Below are positions 1,559-53,476 of a stretch of 64,000 nt of DNA, piece after piece. The position numbers were made by a program, and so were the translations under genes. The notes under the pieces were generated by a model. It saw only the letters and a program-made list of their open reading frames with translations, did not search any database and was not told the origin of the DNA. The DNA is from Candidatus Kapaibacterium sp. (GTDB lineage Bacteria; Bacteroidota; Ignavibacteria; Kapaibacteriales; WFXC01). The stretch covers positions 1 to 64,000 of the forward strand of contig WFXC01000006.1 in NCBI GenBank assembly GCA_015490805.1, in the 5' to 3' direction. Position 1 is the first letter of the stretch. Each line of letters opens with the position of its first letter.

Positions 1559-2692
1559 ATGGCATCCGAAATGCACGGTTTGATCACGCTGGAATTGGTA
1601 ACACCTGCTTTCATCGGGGGTGCTGAACCGCGAGGAAAACCGGAATTCCGCATCCCTTCTTTACGCGGCGCCCTTCGCTACTGGTGGCGTGCGCTGTTCG
1701 GAGCAGGAGTAGAAGACTCGCGAGCGCTGCTCCAGAAAGAATCGAAACTTTTTGGGAGTACAGATAAAGTATCAGCGGTGCAGCTTCGGTTACACAAAGC
1801 AGCCACGCCCACACCGAAATCCTACAGTAAGCTCACCCAAGGGAAACCCGGCATCAGCTATTTATGGTTTGCGGCACGGAAAACCAAAAACGACCCTGAA
1901 CGGCAAGCGTTACCCGATGGGTCACGGTATGTTATTGATGCTTCAATCCACCACCGATCCAGCCCACAGGAACTCTGGAAACAGTTCTACGCCGCTCTCT
2001 GGCTTCTTACCCGCCTTGGGGGCATTGGCACTCGCGCTCGCCGAGGAGCAGGCGGAATACAGGTAGCAGACATACAGTCCTCCACAGAACTCTCTAACCT
2101 TCCTCCGCTGCCAATTCGAGCAACGACAGTAGAACAATTCGGGGAAGAGCTTCAATCGGGAATCCAGCAACTTCGGCGGAACCTACCACCTGATGCATTG
2201 TCAACACAGCCCACATTTCACCTTTTGCATCCAGAATTTGCAGAGATTTGCCTGATAGATCGCTCTTTCTCATCGTGGCAAGAAGCGCTGAACTTTATTG
2301 GTTCCTCCCTGCAAAGCTTTCGCAAATCCAGGTTTCCGGAAGATGCTCGCATTGTTAGTGATCTCATTTTCCGCCACCATTACACTCCTAATCGTACAAT
2401 CCGCCGAGCAGCTTTTGGACTGCCGCTGCCTTTCTTCTTCCGGAGAGAACGACGTGGTGCCACGGTTGATCCCCGACGCGGATCACCCCTGTTCATCCGT
2501 ATTGTGAAACTGGCTGGGCAACAACGCTACGCAATCGTCCTGACATTTTTCAAAGCGCAATTTCTCGACAATGATCACCGCCCCAGTATTCGGGGTCAAA
2601 AGTTTCAAATTCCATCGTATGCTCCCATTGAGCAATGGCTGGATACGCTGAATCTCTTCCAGATCGAACTGAATCGGCATAACGAAGGATAA
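1559..2692 (+). CDS. cmr1: type III-B CRISPR RAMP protein Cmr1
   Basis: N-term LITLELVTPAFIGGAEPRGKPEFRIPSLRGALRYWWRALFG typical of Cmr1 RAMPs; first gene of cmr operon. An internal ATG at 1571 is also possible. Confidence 0.93.
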   Translation: MASEMHGLITLELVTPAFIGGAEPRGKPEFRIPSLRGALRYWWRALFGAGVEDSRALLQKESKLFGSTDKVSAVQLRLHKAATPTPKSYSKLTQGKPGISYLWFAARKTKNDPERQALPDGSRYVIDASIHHRSSPQELWKQFYAALWLLTRLGGIGTRARRGAGGIQVADIQSSTELSNLPPLPIRATTVEQFGEELQSGIQQLRRNLPPDALSTQPTFHLLHPEFAEICLIDRSFSSWQEALNFIGSSLQSFRKSRFPEDARIVSDLIFRHHYTPNRTIRRAAFGLPLPFFFRRERRGATVDPRRGSPLFIRIVKLAGQQRYAIVLTFFKAQFLDNDHRPSIRGQKFQIPSYAPIEQWLDTLNLFQIELNRHNEG

Positions 2693-2697
2693 AACCA

Positions 2698-5600
2698 ATG
2701 GCTGTTTCTCGCTGGGAACGAAAAATTGTTGCGCTCCTGCACGATCCTCCGGATAAGCCATTTGCGATTAGAAAACACGCGGACCGGGGCCGAGATCTCG
2801 TAGAAATTCTCTTGGGTACTGAGCCCAAAACCCAGTCAAACGTCAAAACAGCAGATCAACAAATGTCTGCTGCTGACCGTTTGGTCTTTCCCGATGGAGT
2901 GAGCCGGTTCTGGTCAACCCATCCCCCATTGCTGGTTCATCCTACCAGCGGGCGGCAGCATCGCCTCCCTGACACCATTATGGACTTTGATCCTGAGATC
3001 ACGAAATCTGTCATAGCTCAATTCTCCAAAGGCTTTACACCAGAAGAACAGACACTGGAAAAACAGCAGCGGCTCTACCTCGCATTATGGCGTTGCCTGC
3101 CCGATGCGCTCAGCCAGGCGTTTGCCTCGACCCCAGGGAATCTTTTCGAGCTCCTACCCGCCGAAACCCGACAACCGGACCACCCACTACCGCTGCACGT
3201 TGCCCTGACAGCAGCAGCCGCTGATGCCCTGCAGGGAAAACCTGCGATCCCCGCACTCCTGCATTTTTCCTTTTCGCCAGTGCAAAGCTTTATCGCTGCT
3301 GCGCGCAAAACGCAGGACCTGTGGATGGGAAGCTGGCTCCTTTCATACCTGAGCTGGACTGCCATCCAAACAATTGCCGACGTGTACGGTCCCGACGTCA
3401 TCCTGTACCCGTGGCTTTACAAACAGCCGCTCTGCGACGACTGGCTGCTTCGGGAAAAACAACTGGGAACGCTCCTGAACAACAATCTCTGTACCCTTGC
3501 ACCTCCTCGGTTAGATCTTCGGTTAGATCTTCCCACCTTACCCAACAAATTCGTGGCGTTGCTTCCGTGGGGCGTTCAGAAAGGTCCCCCATATCAGCGC
3601 GTCCAGGAAGTTGCTGCCCGTGCAGAGCAGATGTTTTATCAACGATGGAAAGACATTGCTCAGGCGGTCAAAAATTTTCTGAAAAACGAAATTCCCCACC
3701 TGTGGGATCATTACACTGAACAAATCTGGGACGAACAAACGGGAATCGGGGCCCGTTCCTCCACCATTCCCTTCTCTGTCTTCTGGACAATCTTCCCTTG
3801 GGGCTTCGGCGATTCTGCTGACCCCAACAGTGTGCTACAACTGTACAGGAACCTTTGCAATCCCGGTGATGACTGGGAATTTCAAAAAGTCTATGACGTT
3901 CTCAAATCCAGAGGGAAATATAAGCCCAAACTTGGAACCGTCTACTCCGTGGTGTACGAACTTTCCGACCGATTCTTCCGCTCCCGCAAAACCACGCGCG
4001 TGTTTAGCCAGCGGGCAATACGCGGCAGCAAATGCACAATGTGCGGTGAGCGTGAAGCGCTGCACTCAGAGCCGGCAAGGGCGCGAGAATTCTGGACGCA
4101 GGTAGCCAGGCAGAACCAGCTTTCAACAAAGTTCAAACCTGAAGGGAAAGAACGACTGTGTGCCGTCTGCACAGTGAAGCGACTTTTACCGGAAATTCTG
4201 CGATCTGCTAAAGCAACGGAACTCGGACTTCCGCAATTCTCCCGCACCAGCTATCCTTCCACCAGTGACATTGCATCCCGGGAGGACTCGAACCCCCAAC
4301 CCTCTGATCCGACCAGCTATCCTTCCACCAGTGACATTGCATCGGCAGCTTTCAAGCAGGATCTGCTCCACGCACTCAAAGAAACAGATGCCCAAAAAGC
4401 CCATCACAGAGCGGCATTGCAAAAAGCACTGGAAGCGCTTTTTAACGCTCTCGAAGCCCTGAAAGTCAGACCAACGAATGATCCTCACACCATCCCCCGA
4501 TTGGGCAAGCTGGTCCAACACCTACCCAAAGATCTGCGACCACTCGGCGAACAAATTGTCCAGCTTGACGGAGAAATTTTCTACGAAGAGCGGTACACCG
4601 TCGAAAGTTTTCAAGAGTCAACGGGCGAGTCACCGTCGGAAGCACAACTGGAGGCAGCACGGCAGAAACTTCGCACCGTTCTCGCCATAGCGGATCGGTT
4701 AGGTATTCGAAAACCCGAAAAATACTATGCCATCGTGCTGATGGACGGCGATCAGATGGGGAAGTGGATCAGCGGTGCTCATGATGGACTCCCACGGTTT
4801 CGAGATATACTCTATCCGGGATTAGCCGAAGAGTTGCTCAGTAAAGATTCTTCGGACTCCCAGAACCAATGGACGGCATTGCTGGAACTCAAGCGGATTG
4901 TTACCCCCTCTTTTCACGCCCTTATCTCCTTCGCACTGAATAACTTTGCCCTCCGCTTAGTACCGAAAATCGTCGAGGAACTGTGTCCGGCACGACTGGT
5001 TTATGCCGGCGGCGATGACGTTCTGGCACTGGTGCCGCTGCGATATGCGCTGGAAATAGCGCGCTTGCTGCGCGCCGCTTTCTCAGGAGAAATTCGCTTC
5101 GATGGCGATAATGCCAGAGCGCTCTTTGGCTCACCGGAAGCAACCGGATACGTCGAACTCGACGGCGCTCTGCTGCTCACGATGGGTCCGCCAGCAACTG
5201 CTTCCGCTGGCATCGCCATCACCCACCATCTGGATCCCCTGGACATCGCGCTCCAGGCAGCACGATTGGCAGAAAGGACGGCAAAACACCAGTACGGAAG
5301 AAATGCCCTCAGCCTTTACCTGCTCAAACGCTCCGGCGAAGAACTGCGCGTAGGCAATGCCTGGTTCGTGTCCCTGAACGGCGCCACCGTGGACATTGTT
5401 CAGCAGTTGAACAAAATCGCAACCGCTTTACAAACGGCAAAACTCAGCCGCTCCTTCCCGAAATCCGTAGCAGCCGAAGCAGAAGATCTGGAACAGCTTC
5501 CTATCGAAGCACGCATCAGCCGCACGAGCTATCTACTTTCGCACACTGGGGAACGCCCCAGATCCTCCAGCGAAGAAGATCAGAACGGGTTATCAAAGAA

Positions 5601-5760
5601 AGAACTGGAAGCGTTACTCCAGCAACTGGTGAGGATTTTTGCATCGGACAATGCCGCCAGAACCGATACCGCAGATAAAACCAATGGATCTTCGTGGCAA
5701 CGCTTCGGGATGCTGGCAGAATGGCTGAATGTCTTACGATTCCTGACAACGGAGGCGTAG
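2698..5760 (+). CDS. cas10: type III-B CRISPR Cas10/Cmr2, HD and GGDD motifs present
   Basis: LLHDPPDKPF HD-type motif, CTMCGE...CAVC zinc finger, LVYAGGDDVLALVPL palm motif, 1020 aa. Confidence 0.95.
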   Translation: MAVSRWERKIVALLHDPPDKPFAIRKHADRGRDLVEILLGTEPKTQSNVKTADQQMSAADRLVFPDGVSRFWSTHPPLLVHPTSGRQHRLPDTIMDFDPEITKSVIAQFSKGFTPEEQTLEKQQRLYLALWRCLPDALSQAFASTPGNLFELLPAETRQPDHPLPLHVALTAAAADALQGKPAIPALLHFSFSPVQSFIAAARKTQDLWMGSWLLSYLSWTAIQTIADVYGPDVILYPWLYKQPLCDDWLLREKQLGTLLNNNLCTLAPPRLDLRLDLPTLPNKFVALLPWGVQKGPPYQRVQEVAARAEQMFYQRWKDIAQAVKNFLKNEIPHLWDHYTEQIWDEQTGIGARSSTIPFSVFWTIFPWGFGDSADPNSVLQLYRNLCNPGDDWEFQKVYDVLKSRGKYKPKLGTVYSVVYELSDRFFRSRKTTRVFSQRAIRGSKCTMCGEREALHSEPARAREFWTQVARQNQLSTKFKPEGKERLCAVCTVKRLLPEILRSAKATELGLPQFSRTSYPSTSDIASREDSNPQPSDPTSYPSTSDIASAAFKQDLLHALKETDAQKAHHRAALQKALEALFNALEALKVRPTNDPHTIPRLGKLVQHLPKDLRPLGEQIVQLDGEIFYEERYTVESFQESTGESPSEAQLEAARQKLRTVLAIADRLGIRKPEKYYAIVLMDGDQMGKWISGAHDGLPRFRDILYPGLAEELLSKDSSDSQNQWTALLELKRIVTPSFHALISFALNNFALRLVPKIVEELCPARLVYAGGDDVLALVPLRYALEIARLLRAAFSGEIRFDGDNARALFGSPEATGYVELDGALLLTMGPPATASAGIAITHHLDPLDIALQAARLAERTAKHQYGRNALSLYLLKRSGEELRVGNAWFVSLNGATVDIVQQLNKIATALQTAKLSRSFPKSVAAEAEDLEQLPIEARISRTSYLLSHTGERPRSSSEEDQNGLSKKELEALLQQLVRIFASDNAARTDTADKTNGSSWQRFGMLAEWLNVLRFLTTEA
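4246..4343. repeat. 32-bp direct repeat (4246-4277 and 4312-4343) flanking a 34-bp antisense tRNA-like segment, in frame within cas10
   Basis: ACCAGCTATCCTTCCACCAGTGACATTGCATC occurs twice, identically, period 66 bp = 22 codons; the core CCGGGAGGACTCGAACCCCCAACCCTCTGATCCG is the reverse complement of a tRNA T-arm/variable region. Confidence 0.9.
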
Positions 5761-5762
5761 CA

Positions 5763-6944
5763 ATGAAGTGGCACTTATTGTTAGAACCCGTGGATGTCTG
5801 GCTCTTTCGCGATGGACGTCCTTTCGTTGCCGGTGAAGCCCACCGTGCACGAAGTATTTTTCCACCAACGCCCTACACGCTACAAGGCGCGATTCGTGCC
5901 AAAGTGCTGTTTGACGCAGGTGTTGACCTGATGGAATACGCTCACCAGAGCAGCGAAGCTGCTCGCGAGCTTGCCCGCCGCATTGGCGCTCCGGGGCGTG
6001 GATACGGGCAACTCCGCATCACCGGTCCCGTTTTAGCCCGATCAACCAACGGACAAATCACCCTGTACTACCCTGTTCCGGCGGATATGGTCAGAATCTC
6101 GGCGGAAAACGACGGAGAGACAACAGACACGGTCAAAATCACTGCAACAACGCTCCAGCCACTTGGAAAGGATTTTATGATGGAGGATTTTTCCGATATT
6201 CAAGTTCCCGCCCTTCAATTTCTCTGGGTACCCCGATCCCATATCGAATCCGTTGGGGGATGGCTCACTGCCTCGGACTTCGAGAAATACTTAGCCAACA
6301 GCGGGAAAGACTTTCAAGTCACGATCTACCGCAACAGCTTCTTTTTCCAGACTGAACGCCGGGTTGGGATTCAAATAAATCCTGAGCGGCTCACCACCGA
6401 AGAAGGACGGATCTACCACGCTGATTTCCTCCGCTTTACGCCCGGTACCAGCCTGGTTGCTCAAATCGCTGGAATCGAACCGTTTACCCCTCAAACTGGC
6501 TATTTACAACTGGGTGGAGAAGCTCGCGCTGCCTACTACACCGTTGAACAACAACCGCTGTCCGGATGGTTTCTTAACCAATCCGTACTGAACAATGCGA
6601 CGTTTTCCGGCAGATTCAAGATGATCTTCCTGACCCCCGCCTACTTTCGTCACGGCTGGCATCCTGAGGATTGGTCGACCTTCTTCCCGAATGCCAGCGT
6701 TCGGTGTGTCGGCGCTGCTATTCCGGGAGCCCAGATGATCGGTGGGGCGGTTGTTGATGACCGTCGTCGATCGAGAAATTTTGAACGGACGGCGTACCGC
6801 TTTCTTCCTGCAGGATCGGTGCTGTTCTTTGAAACCGATCAGCCGATTTCGTATAATGGACAACCGGTAACCGAAACACCGGAAGACAGTGACGGGGATC
6901 TCCAGCATATTGGCTTTGGGAGCGTTGTAATTGCTCCTTACTGA
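5763..6944 (+). CDS. cmr3: type III-B CRISPR RAMP protein Cmr3
   Basis: MKWHLLLEPVDVWLFRDGRPFVAGEAHRARSIFPPTPYTLQGAIRAK, typical Cmr3 N-terminus; ATG at 5763 rather than the longer ORF start. Confidence 0.93.
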   Translation: MKWHLLLEPVDVWLFRDGRPFVAGEAHRARSIFPPTPYTLQGAIRAKVLFDAGVDLMEYAHQSSEAARELARRIGAPGRGYGQLRITGPVLARSTNGQITLYYPVPADMVRISAENDGETTDTVKITATTLQPLGKDFMMEDFSDIQVPALQFLWVPRSHIESVGGWLTASDFEKYLANSGKDFQVTIYRNSFFFQTERRVGIQINPERLTTEEGRIYHADFLRFTPGTSLVAQIAGIEPFTPQTGYLQLGGEARAAYYTVEQQPLSGWFLNQSVLNNATFSGRFKMIFLTPAYFRHGWHPEDWSTFFPNASVRCVGAAIPGAQMIGGAVVDDRRRSRNFERTAYRFLPAGSVLFFETDQPISYNGQPVTETPEDSDGDLQHIGFGSVVIAPY

Positions 6945-7004
6945 AGAAAGACACAGTTGAACACTGATGCAAAGTGAGAGTTTTACAATAAACGGAGCAA
7001 AACG

Positions 7005-7943
7005 ATGTATCAACAAGCAATGATCCTCAGCCTGTACGCCGAAACCCCTGTCCACGCAGGTACGGGGGCAACGCCGGGTATTGTTGATCTCCCGATTCAG
7101 CGAGAACGGCATACGCAGTACCCCATTATCCAGGGATCCGGCGTCAAAGGCGTGCTACGCGATCTGGCAGCGATGCGATCTCAGAACAACGCCGGGTTGA
7201 TAGACAGCATTTTTGGACCCGATTCCCAGAGAGCTTCAGAGTACGCTGCTGCAATCTCCGTTTCTGACGCTCGCATTCTCTGCTTTCCAGTGCGATCGCT
7301 GCAAAATGTTTTCGTATGGGCAACTGCTCCTTTTGCTTTAGCCCGATTGCAGCGTGATGCAATCAATAGCGGAATTCCACTGCCCTGGACACCGCCTCAA
7401 CTCGATAACAACACCGCTCTGGTGGCTTCCGATGCAGTGTTGATCAACAACACCTTGATCCTCGAAGAGTTCAGTTTCCAGGCACAATCCTCTCCCGCCG
7501 CTATGGAAATTGCCCGGTGGATTGCTGAGCACCTTTTTCCTGCTGACGATCATTACCAATTCTGGAAAGACGCCTTCACGAAACGCTTTGTCATTCTCCC
7601 CGAAGACGTTTTCCGTGATTTCGTCCAGCATTCAACTGAGATCGTCAGCCGCACCAAATTAGATGACAGCACAAAAACCGTTCAGCGGGGTGCTCTCTGG
7701 ACAGAGGAATATCTCCCCAGCGATTCGTTGCTTTACAGTACGATCCTGGCGACTCAGACTCGCGCTCCCCGAAATGGTGACAATGCGCCGCCACAGTTAG
7801 ATGCTCAACTGGTCATCAACCAGCTCAAACAATGGTTCAACAACCAGCGTATCCAGATCGGCGGCAATGCCACCATCGGGCGTGGAATAGTAGCGTTACG
7901 AACACTTACCGCTTCGTCCAACAACACAGGAGGAGCACAATGA
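7005..7943 (+). CDS. cmr4: type III-B CRISPR RAMP protein Cmr4 (backbone, RNase subunit)
   Basis: YAETPVHAGTGATPGIVDLPIQRERHTQYPIIQGSGVKGVLRD, Cmr4 signature incl. the Asp in the thumb loop. Confidence 0.95.
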   Translation: MYQQAMILSLYAETPVHAGTGATPGIVDLPIQRERHTQYPIIQGSGVKGVLRDLAAMRSQNNAGLIDSIFGPDSQRASEYAAAISVSDARILCFPVRSLQNVFVWATAPFALARLQRDAINSGIPLPWTPPQLDNNTALVASDAVLINNTLILEEFSFQAQSSPAAMEIARWIAEHLFPADDHYQFWKDAFTKRFVILPEDVFRDFVQHSTEIVSRTKLDDSTKTVQRGALWTEEYLPSDSLLYSTILATQTRAPRNGDNAPPQLDAQLVINQLKQWFNNQRIQIGGNATIGRGIVALRTLTASSNNTGGAQ

Positions 7944-8383
7944 GCAAGGGAGCAGCAGCGATGAACCGACGAACCTTAGAACAGCAGCGGGCATATGCTG
8001 CGTGGAAAGCAGTAGCGGAAGTCAAGCCAAAGGAAGCCAAGCAAAAAGACTTCCACGTAAAATATCGGAGCTTAGCCCGGAATCTTCCTTCAATGATTCT
8101 CAGCAACGGACTGGGCGCAACCTTAGCCTTTATCAAGTCCAAGGGCAGTGCAGAACATCAGACAATATACACCCATCTGGATCGCTGGCTGGCCCAATGG
8201 ATCCGTTCCTGGTTGAACAGCACCGTTTCTCAAGGTATCCTTGAATGGATCGTTGCCGAGAGCACCAGTGAAACATACCGTATGGTCACTACCGAGGCAC
8301 TGGCTTTCTCTCAATGGCTGAAACGCTTTGCGGAATCAGAAATCCCGGACGAACAATCGCCGGACGAACAATCGGAGGCATAA
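7940..8383 (+). CDS. cmr5: type III-B CRISPR small subunit Cmr5
   Basis: MSKGAAAMNRRTLEQQRAYAAWKAV..., ATGA overlap with cmr4, small helical protein at cmr5 position; start chosen at 7940 with AGGAGG RBS. Confidence 0.88.
   Translation: MSKGAAAMNRRTLEQQRAYAAWKAVAEVKPKEAKQKDFHVKYRSLARNLPSMILSNGLGATLAFIKSKGSAEHQTIYTHLDRWLAQWIRSWLNSTVSQGILEWIVAESTSETYRMVTTEALAFSQWLKRFAESEIPDEQSPDEQSEA
8345..8374. repeat. 15-bp tandem duplication (x2) at the cmr5 3' end
   Basis: CCGGACGAACAATCG repeated exactly, encodes PDEQS-PDEQS. Confidence 0.9.
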
Positions 8384-8387
8384 GCAG

Positions 8388-9263
8388 ATGGCAAAAGGGA
8401 AAAAATACCGACCTCATCATTCCGGCAAAAAGAGAAACGACAAGCATAAACCCCAACCAGTGGTCTACCTGCCCAAAAGTGTTCGCGAGCAATTACCCAA
8501 AACACCCAGCGGCTCTGTTCGAGACCATTTAGGACTCTGGCTCTCAAAGTACATTAGCTGGGAACAGGATAAAGATGGGAAAGTGAAAGTCTCCCGGACT
8601 TTCCAGCGTCGACTTACCCACCACGGAATTCTTCACCTTGGCGGAAACGCTGCCAAAATAGCCGAAGCAGCATTACAGCGACAGCGTCGTCTGCTCCAGA
8701 AGCTTCAGCAGCAGGGTTATCACACCCACGCTTTTGAACTGGTGACAGCTTCCCGAATGGTTGTGGGATTGGGCATTGAAAGTGTGCTGGAAACCAATCT
8801 CCGGCTCCATCACACGTATGGCATTCCCATCATTCCTGGCTCTGCCCTCAAAGGACTTGCCCGATCCGCTGCGCTCCGATCCGTCGATACGTCCAATCCC
8901 ATCTTCCAAACAGCCTTTGGGAAACAGCAACAGGTGGGATCGGTGATCTTTTTCGATGCTCTTCCCCTGCCTCAGGGAAACAATCACGACCGGTTGCTCA
9001 AGCTTCAACTCGATGTAATGAACGTCCACTTTCCAGATTACTACACCGGTAAAAATTTCCCGACCGAGTGGCAAAACCCAAACCCGATTTTCTTTCTTAC
9101 CGTTGCTTCGGGCACTGCTTTCCTTTTCAGCCTTGCGGTACCACCGAACCGGGACCAGCAAACGCTCTCGCAGGTTGCGCAATGGCTCCAGCAAGGACTT
9201 ACCACAATGGGAATTGGCGCCAAAACTTCTGCTGGTTATGGATTTTTCCGAACGCCTTCGTAG
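8388..9263 (+). CDS. cmr6: type III-B CRISPR RAMP protein Cmr6
   Basis: HTHAFELVTASRMVVGLGIESVLETNLRLHHTYGIPIIPGSALKGLARS and C-term GIGAKTSAGYGFF, Cmr6 signatures; ATG at 8388 (MAKGKKYRPHH). Confidence 0.93.
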   Translation: MAKGKKYRPHHSGKKRNDKHKPQPVVYLPKSVREQLPKTPSGSVRDHLGLWLSKYISWEQDKDGKVKVSRTFQRRLTHHGILHLGGNAAKIAEAALQRQRRLLQKLQQQGYHTHAFELVTASRMVVGLGIESVLETNLRLHHTYGIPIIPGSALKGLARSAALRSVDTSNPIFQTAFGKQQQVGSVIFFDALPLPQGNNHDRLLKLQLDVMNVHFPDYYTGKNFPTEWQNPNPIFFLTVASGTAFLFSLAVPPNRDQQTLSQVAQWLQQGLTTMGIGAKTSAGYGFFRTPS

Positions 9264-20719: not shown

Positions 20720-20792
20720 CACGAGCGGAGGGACTCGAACCCCCAACCTGCGGTTTTGGAGACCGCTGCTCTACCAATTGAGCTACGCTCGT
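20720..20792 (-). tRNA. tRNA-Trp (anticodon CCA)
   Basis: Cloverleaf: acceptor ACGAGCG/CGCTCGT, TAGCTC D-arm, loop TCCAAA, T-arm GGTTCGAGTCC. Confidence 0.95.
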
Positions 20793-49064: not shown

Positions 49065-49211
49065 ATTTTCTATGCAAAAATCCTAAGGTTTGTCATTACC
49101 ATCCTTTCCCCAACGAGAAAGAATTGAAGACAGTGATCCCTCATTGATGACTCACAGTGTATCTGCAAACCCTATGTGAAATTGTTTCTTGGGAAATTCT
49201 CAATACCCCCC

Positions 49212-49304
49212 TGATCACCCAGAGTGTACTCTCTCAATCGCTGATCAAAGATGCTAATGCACTTGTAGCATATCCTTGATCACCCAGAGTGTACTCTCTC
49301 AATC
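49212..49304. repeat. 28-bp direct repeat pair (49212-49239, 49277-49304); one copy encodes the C-terminus of the restriction gene
   Basis: TGATCACCCAGAGTGTACTCTCTCAATC, identical, separated by 37 bp. Confidence 0.9.
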
Positions 49305-52300
49305 ACCCTCCGGTCTTTTTCCGAAAGACCATACAGGTGATATACAATTTGGTCGATCAAGAGATCGGTGCGCTCAATGTCTCTGTGCTTCTGGCATAGA
49401 CGATCTCTGGCAATTTCTCGCTGAACTTCGCTGTTCAGGTTTTCTTCCCACTCTGGATGGAGTGTCAGCTCTTTGAGAACTCGAACCCTTTCCCGCGTTC
49501 CGCTTTCCAGACGACCTTGGGCAAACAACTCCAAAAGATAGCGCAACTTTTGCATTTCCGCCATCTGTTTGGCAAGAAACGCCAGAAAATCGTGCAACAC
49601 GGCTGAGCTTGAGGGTAAAGAGCGGACGCGGGATATTGGATTCTTGCCTCCGTTGTATGCTTCCTGCAAAACTCTGAGGATCTGCTGATCTCGAGTTGCA
49701 AAATCAATGATGGGAATAGGTAGCGGTTCAAGAAACTGTTTGTTGGCTGCAAAATGACCTCCTCGATGTGGTACGCTGATACACTTGAAATAGACATCCT
49801 CCGCCCTACTGTTTAGTATAGCAAGCAAAAACCAAAAATCATAGGGACTGTCACTCTCTACAAGGATTCCATTTACCCGAACGTTGTGGAAATAAAATTG
49901 AGCTTGAGCGTCCAGAAATACTTCCAGTCTTTTCACCGTTTGAGCTACACCAAACTTCCGCCGTTCATGCTTATCAAGGTTTTGAGTTCTACTCAACCTA
50001 TACCATTCCGAATCACCAAACTTTCCACCCTCCCTGTTGCGTAATGCTTCCTCGTGCATTTTCAGGTACTCCCAAACGTTGGGATACTCAAGCTGAAATT
50101 CCGCAGGTGTTATTAGCTCCGCTCCACCTTCCGGAAGGAGTTTGTAAGGGAATAGCAGGAGTTTATTACTCATACGCACATAATACCGCTCGATATCCTC
50201 TCCGGATATGAGTGGTTTAAGCAGATCCTTTTCTAGAAGGAATTCCCGCTGGCTGGCTTTAGAGAAAACGCGATAATACGCCCCTTTGTCCTCTCGCTTC
50301 TCAAGTATGTAAATGGGATCAGCGCTGGTAATGAGCCCCTGGAAGATCTGCTCCACGATTTGCCCCAGCGGTTTTCCTCGTTTCTCCATTTTCCGCATAA
50401 TTTCAGCTTCTTCTCCAGAGACCAGAATCCACGGCGCCTCTCCCAGCGATGCCAAAGGAACGGCTTGCATCTCCTTATCGGCTTCTTTCAGCCATACTGG
50501 CAGCGGTTTTTCCACGGTGGAAGGAATCTGAGCGACCATACAGGTATCAGGCGCTTCTTCTTGAGAGAACTTTCGCAGGAATAGCAAACTGGTATACGTT
50601 GTTTGCTCCGGGAACACCTGACGATCTCGAAAATCAATAAACTTCCAGAGAAATGGACGAACCATTTGGCGGAACTTCTGAGCAAAGTCCAGCTTGGTGA
50701 ACTTGTTGGGAAGTATAAATCCAAGCACTCCCCCTTCTTTCAGAAGGATCAATCCCTTTTCCACGAACAGGATATAAATATCGTAGGAGCCCTGAGGGGA
50801 TTTGAAAACCTGGTTGTAATAATCCACCTCATCCGCATGGGATCTGCGCATTTCCTGAATACGAATGTACGGAGGATTGCCCAGCACCACATCAAAACCA
50901 GGGTTTGCTTTCACGCCGTGCTGGTTGTACCATACTTCGGGGAATTCCAGTTTCCAGTGGAAAAATCGCTTTTTCCGTGCCAGTTGCAATCGTTCCTGCA
51001 GTTTCTGGAAATCGTCGGGAGTCATTTCCTCCTCACCGTTTGCAGTTTGCAACTTTCCTTCCACAACTTTCAGCGGATCGAATACTTCCATCATTGCCCA
51101 GGCCCACGGCACGGACGATCGTCTGTGATTTTTTCTGTTACTGTTCTGCTGAAGGTAGCTTTTCACTTTTTTCAGCTCTACAAAAAACTCGGCTGTGTAC
51201 AGGTCCAGGGCTTTCGTCAGTGCAGACAGATTCTGGGATACCTGTTCATAAAGGCGAGCGCTTTCTTCCACCTCCGATATATCTGCATCGGTCAGCTCCT
51301 GAAGTTTTTGAATTGTATCCACTACGGAGAAAGCACGATGAAAATGTTGTCCCATTAGCGAAGAGCCCAGCACCTGGCGCACTTCTTCCGGATCTGCGCC
51401 GACCAGCGAATTACCACACTTCAGGTGATGATCCAGAAAGGACAGGGGAGCACCGACGGTAAAAGTATGCAACCACAGGGACACTTTTGCCAGTTCCACA
51501 GCCAAAGGATTGACATCCACGCCATAGATACAACGTTTCAGAAGAATGCGTTTAATGAGATTCCGATCTTCCAGTTTAGCTTCATCAATGGCATATCCTT
51601 CTTTTTGTGCCCGGCTTAGAATCCGAAACCGGATTTCTTCCAGCTTCTGTAAAAGTGGACTTCGATACACGACGCCACGGAAATACTCTTGCTCTGAAGT
51701 TTCCGAAAGAATTTCCAGAATACGATCGGCAAGATAGTCGACAGCCGCCACCAGGAAATGTCCGCTCCCCATAGCAGGATCCACAATTTTCAGAGAGAGT
51801 AAACGCTGCGCCGGATCCTTGAGCTGCAAAAGCGCGTTCCGGTACTCATTAATGGTCTTCTCTCCAACAATTCGCCCCTCTTCGTCATATTGTTTGGGAT
51901 CAAAGTAAATCCCGGAATTCTCTATCCTTTTCCGAAGTTCCGCCTTAGAGCGGATTCTTTGCAGCTTTTGTCGCCATTGCTCAAACTCGCTCAAAAAGTG
52001 CTCCACATACGGTTCCACGGTGCTGCGAACGATGTACTGAACAACATAATCTGGTGTGTAATACGAACCGGTTGCTTTGCGCTCTGCACGGTCATTAGTC
52101 AGGTACAACATCCCCCGGTGCAGAATAGCCTTGTGTGAGTCTTTTGCAGCAACGTATATTTCCCTTCCGTTTCTTTTGCGAACTACCAGATCTTCTTCGG
52201 CTATTTTGAGCCTGAACTCCAGCAGTCCTTCATAAATACTTCCTAACTGGCGAACGGACAGGTCTCGATAATTGATCCTCTTTGGGGGAGATTCCGCGTA

Positions 52301-53476
52301 ATCCCGGCTCAATTTATCCAGAGCAGGAACCAACCAAAAATCGGGAACAGCATACGTTTCTAAAAAGGGATGCCTGGACGGATCAAACAGCGCCCCGTTA
52401 TAAGCGGGAACTCCAATAGAAGGATCTCCAGAATGAACAATGGCAAATACAGTACGCAAACAGTCATAATAGCACGTTGCTTTCTTACTGAGATGGATGC
52501 TCTTTCCCATTTTCTCAGCAATCTCCGAGCGAATTCGAGAAAGAGAGTATTGAAAATACGCTCCGGTCCGCACCGGAAGTAAGTCCCGATCCTCAGCGTA
52601 GAACAGAAAGAGAAGGCGATATAGGAATACTAAGGTGTGGTGATACACCTGGTCCAGCACAGAGGCATCTACCCGTGTTCCTCTTTCTTGGACACTATGC
52701 AAGAATCCTTGAGCAATGGAAGGGAAGATGTCCGTAAAGATCGTTTCCTTAAGCGTTTCCGACACTCGTGCTTCCCACCGTTTCCCTTCTTCCAGTGCAA
52801 TTTCCAGGAAGGTACGGTGAGGTCGGTATGCTGCGGGGATAAAAGCCTCTTTCCGAAAGATGAAGTAAAATCGCTTAAACTGCTCAAAGCCTTCTGAATC
52901 TTCTTGCTGAGCTAATTCAAGAAGATCGAATTCCACATATCCATCGATCCGGGAAGGAGCACGGTGATAATACAGCCTCCAGACCCTGCCGTTGGTAAGC
53001 ATTCCCCAAAGAAGGCGCCCATTGGAAACAACCTCCGCAGTAGAAAGATACCGCAGCATCTGGCTGGAGGGAATCCGTGGATCAATGGGATCTGACCGAT
53101 CACTTCTATCCAGCAACCTTCCCCATCGCTTTGCTTCCAAAATGGCAATAGCTTCTTGCCACCTCCTTTCCGGCGAGCGATCGAAACTTTCTTTGGCTTC
53201 CCCAGTCGCGAAGAGCACATAGTCAGGTACGTTGCGCCGCTGCTGGAAATCCAATGGCTTTTGGCGGGAATACGAAAATCCCAATAGTTTCAGCACCGGC
53301 TCGATCAGGTCTGTTTCCGTATCTGCTTCGTCCGGCTCTTCTCGCTGTGTAAATGAAAGAACGCATCTCCGAATCTCTTGCCACACTTTCTGTGCAGATT
53401 CGACCGAAAGGTTTTTCCAATCAGGCGTATTCTGGATTCCTTCGGACAAAAAGTACTCGCTGAAAAGATTTGCCAT
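49280..53476 (-). CDS. single-chain restriction enzyme/N6-adenine DNA methyltransferase (Eco57I-like, type IIG)
   Basis: N-terminal PD-(D/E)XK-like VPDYVLF...AIAILEAKRWGR; SAM motif IVDPAMGSGHFLVAAVDY; catalytic VVLGNPPYIR; C-terminal target recognition-like region. Confidence 0.88.
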   Translation of the reverse strand: MANLFSEYFLSEGIQNTPDWKNLSVESAQKVWQEIRRCVLSFTQREEPDEADTETDLIEPVLKLLGFSYSRQKPLDFQQRRNVPDYVLFATGEAKESFDRSPERRWQEAIAILEAKRWGRLLDRSDRSDPIDPRIPSSQMLRYLSTAEVVSNGRLLWGMLTNGRVWRLYYHRAPSRIDGYVEFDLLELAQQEDSEGFEQFKRFYFIFRKEAFIPAAYRPHRTFLEIALEEGKRWEARVSETLKETIFTDIFPSIAQGFLHSVQERGTRVDASVLDQVYHHTLVFLYRLLFLFYAEDRDLLPVRTGAYFQYSLSRIRSEIAEKMGKSIHLSKKATCYYDCLRTVFAIVHSGDPSIGVPAYNGALFDPSRHPFLETYAVPDFWLVPALDKLSRDYAESPPKRINYRDLSVRQLGSIYEGLLEFRLKIAEEDLVVRKRNGREIYVAAKDSHKAILHRGMLYLTNDRAERKATGSYYTPDYVVQYIVRSTVEPYVEHFLSEFEQWRQKLQRIRSKAELRKRIENSGIYFDPKQYDEEGRIVGEKTINEYRNALLQLKDPAQRLLSLKIVDPAMGSGHFLVAAVDYLADRILEILSETSEQEYFRGVVYRSPLLQKLEEIRFRILSRAQKEGYAIDEAKLEDRNLIKRILLKRCIYGVDVNPLAVELAKVSLWLHTFTVGAPLSFLDHHLKCGNSLVGADPEEVRQVLGSSLMGQHFHRAFSVVDTIQKLQELTDADISEVEESARLYEQVSQNLSALTKALDLYTAEFFVELKKVKSYLQQNSNRKNHRRSSVPWAWAMMEVFDPLKVVEGKLQTANGEEEMTPDDFQKLQERLQLARKKRFFHWKLEFPEVWYNQHGVKANPGFDVVLGNPPYIRIQEMRRSHADEVDYYNQVFKSPQGSYDIYILFVEKGLILLKEGGVLGFILPNKFTKLDFAQKFRQMVRPFLWKFIDFRDRQVFPEQTTYTSLLFLRKFSQEEAPDTCMVAQIPSTVEKPLPVWLKEADKEMQAVPLASLGEAPWILVSGEEAEIMRKMEKRGKPLGQIVEQIFQGLITSADPIYILEKREDKGAYYRVFSKASQREFLLEKDLLKPLISGEDIERYYVRMSNKLLLFPYKLLPEGGAELITPAEFQLEYPNVWEYLKMHEEALRNREGGKFGDSEWYRLSRTQNLDKHERRKFGVAQTVKRLEVFLDAQAQFYFHNVRVNGILVESDSPYDFWFLLAILNSRAEDVYFKCISVPHRGGHFAANKQFLEPLPIPIIDFATRDQQILRVLQEAYNGGKNPISRVRSLPSSSAVLHDFLAFLAKQMAEMQKLRYLLELFAQGRLESGTRERVRVLKELTLHPEWEENLNSEVQREIARDRLCQKHRDIERTDLLIDQIVYHLYGLSEKDRRVIERVHSG

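What the first reader, a model, noticed from the sequence alone, without database searches (positions are those of the whole stretch)
4246..4343. tRNA 3'-half captured antisense and in frame inside cas10
Seen directly: the 32-bp sequence ACCAGCTATCCTTCCACCAGTGACATTGCATC is present twice, perfectly, 66 bp apart (exactly 22 codons), around a 34-bp core. The reverse complement of the core plus its edges, TCGGATCAGAGGGTTGGGGGTTCGAGTCCTCCCGGGATGCA, reads as a tRNA 3' half: anticodon 3' arm (TCAGA), variable region GGGTT, T-stem GGGGG / T-loop TTCGAGT / CCTCC, then an acceptor-like CGGGATGC. 18 nt (GGTTGGGGGTTCGAGTCC) are identical to the tRNA-Trp gene in this window (20720-20792). The anticodon-side sequence looks most like tRNA-Arg(NCG) by memory of that family. 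The tRNA-like 3' end GATGCA is shared with the start of the flanking repeat, suggesting microhomology at the tRNA 3' end, the usual att core of tRNA-targeting integrases, or capture of a tRNA fragment. The result is a 22-aa insert (TSYPSTSDIASREDSNPQPSDP) between the zinc finger and palm of an otherwise intact Cas10. tRNA-derived coding insertions in Cas10 are not something I know of.
Basis: partly seen in the sequence, partly recalled or inferred. Interest (0 to 1): 0.68.

Follow-up and report, generated by a model that had tools for sequence, protein, structure and literature searches.

The report
Off-target CRISPR spacer inserted into cas10
A piece of the bacterium's own tRNA gene was pasted into its cas10 immunity gene, most likely by the CRISPR memory-writing enzyme Cas1-Cas2 missing its target, and the same genome carries about 30 other such misplaced insertions, so the integrase appears to act as a slow genome-wide mutagen that seeds new miniature CRISPR-like arrays.

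Summary
Two perfect 32-bp copies (4246-4277, 4312-4343) lie 66 bp apart inside an intact cmr2/cas10. The core is 36/36 identical to the host tRNA-Arg(UCG) gene (tRNA positions 35-70 of 75). Both congeners lack exactly these 66 bp.

The unit measures 30-bp target duplication + 36-bp insert = 66 bp. The host's native CRISPR arrays have a 30-nt repeat, 35-37-nt spacers and a 65-67 bp period. It is best explained as one off-target spacer integration by Cas1-Cas2.

Scanning 98% of the genome found 36 two-copy repeat pairs at period 64-67 (1.7 expected; none at 61-63 or 68-71). They have unrelated repeats and cores, and one lies elsewhere in this window (49212-49304). Thirteen sites have empty-site alleles in one or both congeners. 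At least four sites have three or more repeats. Insertions are concentrated just 3' of cas2 in the congeners; 27 cas1 loci from other genera show only native arrays.

Off-target integration is known (Nivala 2018). Its natural genome-wide scale, array growth and in-frame contribution to cas10 look new. No target-site similarity to the native repeat or leader was detected.

The parts
2698..5760 (+). cmr2/cas10 (type III-B), 1020 aa, intact; carries the in-frame 66-bp insertion
   Evidence: ORF; Pfam Cmr2_N and Cas10-Cmr2_palm2; PDB Cmr2 matches
4247..4276 (.). target-site duplication, copy 1 (inferred 30 bp; maximal observed repeat 4246-4277)
   Evidence: both congeners have a single copy
4277..4312 (-). 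36-bp insert ('spacer'), 36/36 identical to host tRNA-Arg(UCG) positions 35-70, antisense to cas10
   Evidence: native spacers are 35-37 nt, mode 36
4313..4342 (.). target-site duplication, copy 2 (maximal observed repeat 4312-4343)
49212..49239 (.). second ectopic unit in the window: repeat copy 1 (28/28 identical; 30/31 over 49209-49239)
49240..49276 (.). core of the second unit, no other match in the genome
49277..49304 (.). repeat copy 2 of the second unit; overlaps the 3' end of a 1398-aa minus-strand ORF (49280-53476)
49145..49172 (.). probable degenerate third repeat of the second unit (17/28 identical, 67 bp upstream)
1559..9263 (+). cmr operon around cas10: three RAMP proteins (1559-2692, 7005-7943, 8328-9263) and cmr3 (5763-6944)

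Best explanation
The 98-bp segment is a natural off-target spacer integration. A 36-bp double-stranded fragment of the host's own tRNA-Arg(UCG) gene was captured as a prespacer. The Cas1-Cas2 integrase (G000:C8 cas4-cas1-cas2) inserted it into cas10 instead of the CRISPR leader end. The two strand transfers were staggered by one repeat length, so gap filling duplicated 30 bp of cas10 on either side. The 66-bp result is a multiple of 3 without stops, so Cas10 gained 22 residues in a predicted disordered loop and stayed open. It is one of about 33 such sites in this genome, of graded ages, which together record continuing off-target integration in this Kapabacteria genus; some sites were reused and grew into mini-arrays. 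Shown: the anatomy, tRNA identity, empty sites, length match to native arrays, genome-wide excess and presence of cas1-cas2. Inferred: that Cas1-Cas2 was the catalyst, and that the Cas10 insert is functionally near-neutral.
For: The native arrays have a 30-nt repeat, spacers of 35-37 nt (mostly 36) and periods 65-67; the cas10 unit is 30 + 36 = 66. After removing native arrays, tandem repeats and dispersed families, 36 pairs remain at period 64-67 against 1.7 expected, with zero at 61-63 and 68-71. Repeats and cores differ between sites, and only the cas10 core has a full-length self match, so this is neither slippage nor a dispersed element. Alignments show about 65-67 extra bp with one repeat left at sites 1, 5, 7, 8, 11, 12, 20 and 28 against both congeners, 9 and 14 against G002, and 18, 19 and 24 against G001 (sites 9 and 19 are split into two gaps against one relative). 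G002 has its own private perfect unit next to cas2, empty in G001. Units found in all three species have lower copy-to-copy identity (25.8 against 27.7 of 30, p = 0.03). Three or more repeats occur at sites 2, 14, 21 and 26; at site 14, G002 has R-S1-R while G000 and G001 have R-S2-R-S1-R. Units are dense beside cas4-cas1-cas2 in all three congeners. 27 cas1 loci from other genera show only native arrays.
Against: Target sites do not resemble the native repeat (z = 1.1) or the leader-repeat junction beyond chance, whereas off-target sites in E. coli are reported to resemble the native locus. Four cores had no exact 24-mer match in viral contigs, so foreign origin of the other cores is unproven. 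There is no experiment linking Cas1-Cas2 to these events. The host genome is a 48-contig draft assembly.
Confidence: 0.92

Rival explanations
1. One reading: a tRNA-targeting integrase att core, or microhomology-mediated capture of a tRNA 3' fragment.
For: The core is truly tRNA-Arg sequence.
Against: The tRNA 3' end is not included (positions 35-70 of 75) and the overlap with the repeats is 1 nt per side. About 30 other units share the architecture with non-tRNA cores. No integrase or element accompanies the site.
Confidence: 0.02
2. Repair of double-strand breaks with about 30-nt 5' or 3' staggers and filler DNA, or replication template switching, giving a local duplication plus filler.
For: Such repair can give duplications flanking filler DNA (general knowledge).
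Against: It gives broad length distributions; here both the duplication and the insert lengths are fixed (period 64-67 only) and equal the CRISPR values. It does not explain serial growth at site 14 or clustering near cas2.
Confidence: 0.04
3. An undescribed miniature mobile element with a 30-bp target duplication.
For: Precise insertions with a fixed duplication and with empty sites.
Against: Cores share no sequence with one another, so there is no element; the cas10 core is a tRNA piece; lengths coincide with the native CRISPR period.
Confidence: 0.02

Closest known systems
Non-canonical (off-target) Cas1-Cas2 spacer integration, Nivala, Shipman & Church 2018 (doi 10.1038/s41564-017-0097-z; paper not held; cited in PMC9456107 and PMC11788318)
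   Same: Spacer-length DNA inserted outside the array with duplication of a repeat-length target, proposed as a route to new CRISPR loci
   Different: In E. coli mostly seen on Cas1-Cas2 overexpression (PMC11788318) and near IHF-like sites (PMC9456107); from memory only a few natural cases were proposed (Yersinia pestis, Sulfolobus islandicus). Here about 33 natural sites in one genome, polymorphic between species, some grown into mini-arrays, one coding in frame in cas10, clustered near cas2, with no detectable site motif.
Ectopic spacer acquisition in Streptococcus thermophilus arrays (PMC7999890, PMC5338259)
   Same: Spacers integrated away from the leader-proximal end
   Different: That is within a genuine CRISPR array at a native repeat; here the targets are unrelated chromosomal sequences.
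Insertion-sequence transposition into cas genes (PMC10359306)
   Same: A natural insertion in a cas gene flanked by a target duplication
   Different: Inserts there are IS elements that inactivate; here the insert is 36 bp of host tRNA and the frame is kept.

Membership tests
Off-target Cas1-Cas2 spacer integration | Target duplication length equals the native CRISPR repeat | tested here: met
   30 bp inferred for cas10 (maximal repeat 32, 1 nt chance extension per side); native repeat 30 nt
Off-target Cas1-Cas2 spacer integration | Insert length equals the native spacer length | tested here: met
   36 bp; native spacers 35-37, mode 36
Off-target Cas1-Cas2 spacer integration | Single-copy empty site before integration | tested here: met
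   both congeners lack exactly 66 bp in cas10; 12 other sites likewise against one or both
Off-target Cas1-Cas2 spacer integration | Cas1-Cas2 encoded by the host | tested here: met
   cas4-cas1-cas2 at G000:C8
Off-target Cas1-Cas2 spacer integration | Insert derives from another DNA (self or foreign) | tested here: met
   tRNA-Arg(UCG) gene for cas10; source of the other cores unknown
Off-target Cas1-Cas2 spacer integration | Target resembles the native leader/repeat (reported trait in E. coli, not strictly defining) | tested here: inconclusive
   no excess similarity overall
Off-target Cas1-Cas2 spacer integration | Dependence on Cas1 catalysis | not testable with these tools
   needs an experiment
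tRNA-targeting integrase att site | Core includes the tRNA 3' end and flanks an integrated element | tested here: not met
   tRNA positions 35-70 of 75 only; no element
Native CRISPR array | Repeat identical to the host CRISPR repeat | tested here: not met
   the repeat is cas10 sequence, unrelated to GTTTCAATTCCGACACGGTGCGATCAAAAC

The most novel reading that the evidence does not exclude
A bacterial genus carries a naturally promiscuous Cas1-Cas2 that continually inserts 66-bp repeat-spacer units across its genome, preferentially beside its own genes. Some of these ectopic units grow by polar addition into neo-CRISPR arrays that are transcribed and used, and others, as in cas10, become part of proteins and alter the immune system that made them.
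Probability: 0.2. Interest if true: 0.92.

Novelty: new variant of a known kind. Interest (0 to 1): 0.8.

Why it matters
CRISPR arrays must arise from somewhere, and off-target integration has been proposed as a route but known mostly from overexpression. A natural lineage with about 33 off-target events of graded age, polymorphic between species and several of them growing into mini-arrays, makes array birth, integrase specificity and the mutational cost of adaptation directly testable. It also gives a case of a host tRNA fragment becoming coding sequence in a CRISPR effector gene.

Tried and rejected
Similarity of the duplicated target sites to the native repeat and to the leader-repeat junction: not above random. 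Viral sources of four young cores by exact 24-mers: none. Phage search with the 98 bp: none. RNA-derived spacer via RT-Cas1: the cas1 ORF is 358 aa with only a Cas1 domain, so there is no RT fusion and a DNA origin is preferred. Microsatellites, dispersed hairpin repeats (...GCCGACT..AGTCGGC..) and native arrays were filtered out of the count. Sites 2, 16, 17, 21 and 26 had no match in the congeners, and sites 3, 4 and 23 stayed unclear.

Full report
Observation. The window holds a 32-bp sequence twice, perfectly, at 4246-4277 and 4312-4343 (0 expected), inside a 1020-aa Cas10/Cmr2 ORF (2698-5760) of a type III-B cmr operon. Searching the host genome, 36 consecutive bases (4277-4312) are identical to tRNA-Arg(UCG) at G000:C22, and 35 to tRNA-Arg(ACG) at C31. 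The tRNA match runs from the first anticodon base to position 70 of 75 and does not reach the 3' end.

Insertion, not ancestry. Two congeners (G001, G002), corresponding to 'Candidatus Kapaibacterium' MAGs JALWUI01 and JALWJX01, have Cas10 at 90% identity. Both lack exactly 66 bp, with one copy of the repeat left. Among nine aligned Cas10 proteins only the window's has the 22 extra residues 517-538. They sit in a segment predicted as an unstructured, low-confidence loop between helices (pLDDT below 50 at 514-539). The duplicated stretch TSYPSTSDIA is itself conserved in other Cas10s (TSFPSTSTVA in bacteria HR08 and HR10).

Dimensions. The spacer-sized core is 36 bp, which leaves a 30-bp duplication. 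The host's two long native CRISPR arrays (L016:34-1126 beside cas4-cas1-cas2; L153) use a 30-nt repeat, GTTTCAATTCCGACACGGTGCGATCAAAAC, with spacers of 35-37 nt (mostly 36) and periods 65-67. The cas10 unit therefore has exactly the dimensions of one repeat-spacer unit, but with cas10 sequence in place of the repeat.

Genome-wide. 2.62 of 2.67 Mb were scanned for two-copy direct repeats over a range of spacings. After removing native arrays, tandem repeats and dispersed families, 36 pairs fall at spacing 64-67 (2, 8, 17, 9), none at 61-63 or 68-71, against a background of 0.43 per spacing (1.7 expected; Poisson P about 1e-34). The clearest perfect examples have repeats of 28-34 bp. Cores have no other full-length copy in the genome except the cas10 one and do not resemble each other. 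About 33 sites were catalogued by hand; most lie in intergenic DNA although 87% of the genome is in ORFs by a crude ORF call. The three clear cases inside longer ORFs (cas10; a 2242-aa ORF in L108; a 200-aa ORF in L124) all have the frame-preserving 66-bp length. One further site is in the window, at 49212-49304, with a likely third, decayed repeat at 49145.

History. A concatenated empty-site query against the congeners and local alignments classify the sites. Empty in both congeners: 1, 5, 6, 7, 8, 9, 11, 12, 20, 24, 28, 32 (gaps for 6 and 32, and for 24 in G002, are less clean). Filled in both: 10, 13, 15, 25, 29, 30, 31, 33, 34. Filled in one: 14, 18, 19 and probably 27. Copies are more alike in the private units (27.7 of 30) than in the shared ones (25.8 of 30; p = 0.03), as expected of younger and older events. 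G002 has a private perfect unit at the end of cas2 that is empty in G001. Patterns such as site 14 (present in G000 and G001) against 18 and 19 (present in G000 and G002) imply some losses, for instance by recombination between the repeats, or gene exchange.

Growth. Sites 2, 14, 21 and 26 have three or more repeats at the same spacing. At site 14, G002 has repeat-S1-repeat while G000 and G001 have repeat-S2-repeat-S1-repeat, S2 lying between the two most similar repeats at one end. This is what polar spacer addition at a new locus would leave; loss of S2 in G002 is the alternative.

Place. Beside cas4-cas1-cas2, events 23 and 26 flank the operon in G000. In G001 and G002 six distinct sites lie in about 7.7 kb around their cas1 genes, three of them within about 900 bp 3' of one cas2. 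In 27 cas1 loci of other genera of the order (95 kb) essentially only native multi-copy arrays appear at these spacings. The phenomenon thus looks genus-specific and biased to the adaptation locus.

Mechanism. Among known activities, only Cas1-Cas2 duplicates a target of repeat length around an insert of spacer length (established knowledge of spacer acquisition). I infer that a prespacer cut from the tRNA-Arg gene was integrated off target into cas10. What remains unshown is the catalyst itself, the reason for low specificity (no motif was found) and the source of the other cores. Nivala et al. 2018 described off-target integration in E. coli; it is cited for overexpression effects in PMC11788318 and for IHF-like sites in PMC9456107. 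The paper itself was not available, so its natural examples are from memory. Literature searches found no report of a natural genome-wide set, within an open-access library only.

Verdict. The tRNA capture is real, but it is one instance of a much larger phenomenon: natural off-target CRISPR spacer integration, at a scale and with an evolutionary record not found in the library searched.

Noticed in passing
window 49145-49304: A second ectopic repeat-core-repeat (period 65) with a likely decayed third repeat; its last repeat forms the 3' end of a 1398-aa minus-strand ORF.
   Followed up: partly
L055:3437-3530 (G000:C41): The core of this ectopic unit ends in GTTTCAATTC, the first 10 nt of the native CRISPR repeat; in reverse complement it reads like a crRNA 5' handle (..GAATTGAAAC) followed by 28 nt of an unknown spacer, as if array DNA or a crRNA copy had been captured.
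   Followed up: no
L114:777-883 (G000:C24): A two-repeat mini-array of the native CRISPR repeat (period 66), the first repeat degenerate, away from cas1-cas2.
   Followed up: no
L200, L201 (G002:C3, G001:C133): A second adaptation module, cas6-like gene, cas4, cas1 (330 aa) and cas2, in both congeners; the Pfam Cas1 search finds only one cas1 (358 aa) in the window's genome. G001 has both modules, G002 only this one.
   Followed up: partly
L071:5413-5577, L185, L168: Site 14: an ectopic mini-array with one spacer in G002 and two in G000 and G001.
   Followed up: yes
genome-wide, e.g. L059:9180-9228, L047:451-479, L061:1426-1456: A dispersed family of short palindromic hairpins (GCCGACTTTCGTCGGC / CACACTGAAGTGTG flanked by GCGCTCCCAG), excluded from the count.
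   Followed up: no
window 4246-4343, Cas10 residues 517-548: The duplicated stretch TSYPSTSDIA is a conserved motif in other Cas10/Cmr2 proteins, so this Cas10 carries the motif twice.
   Followed up: partly
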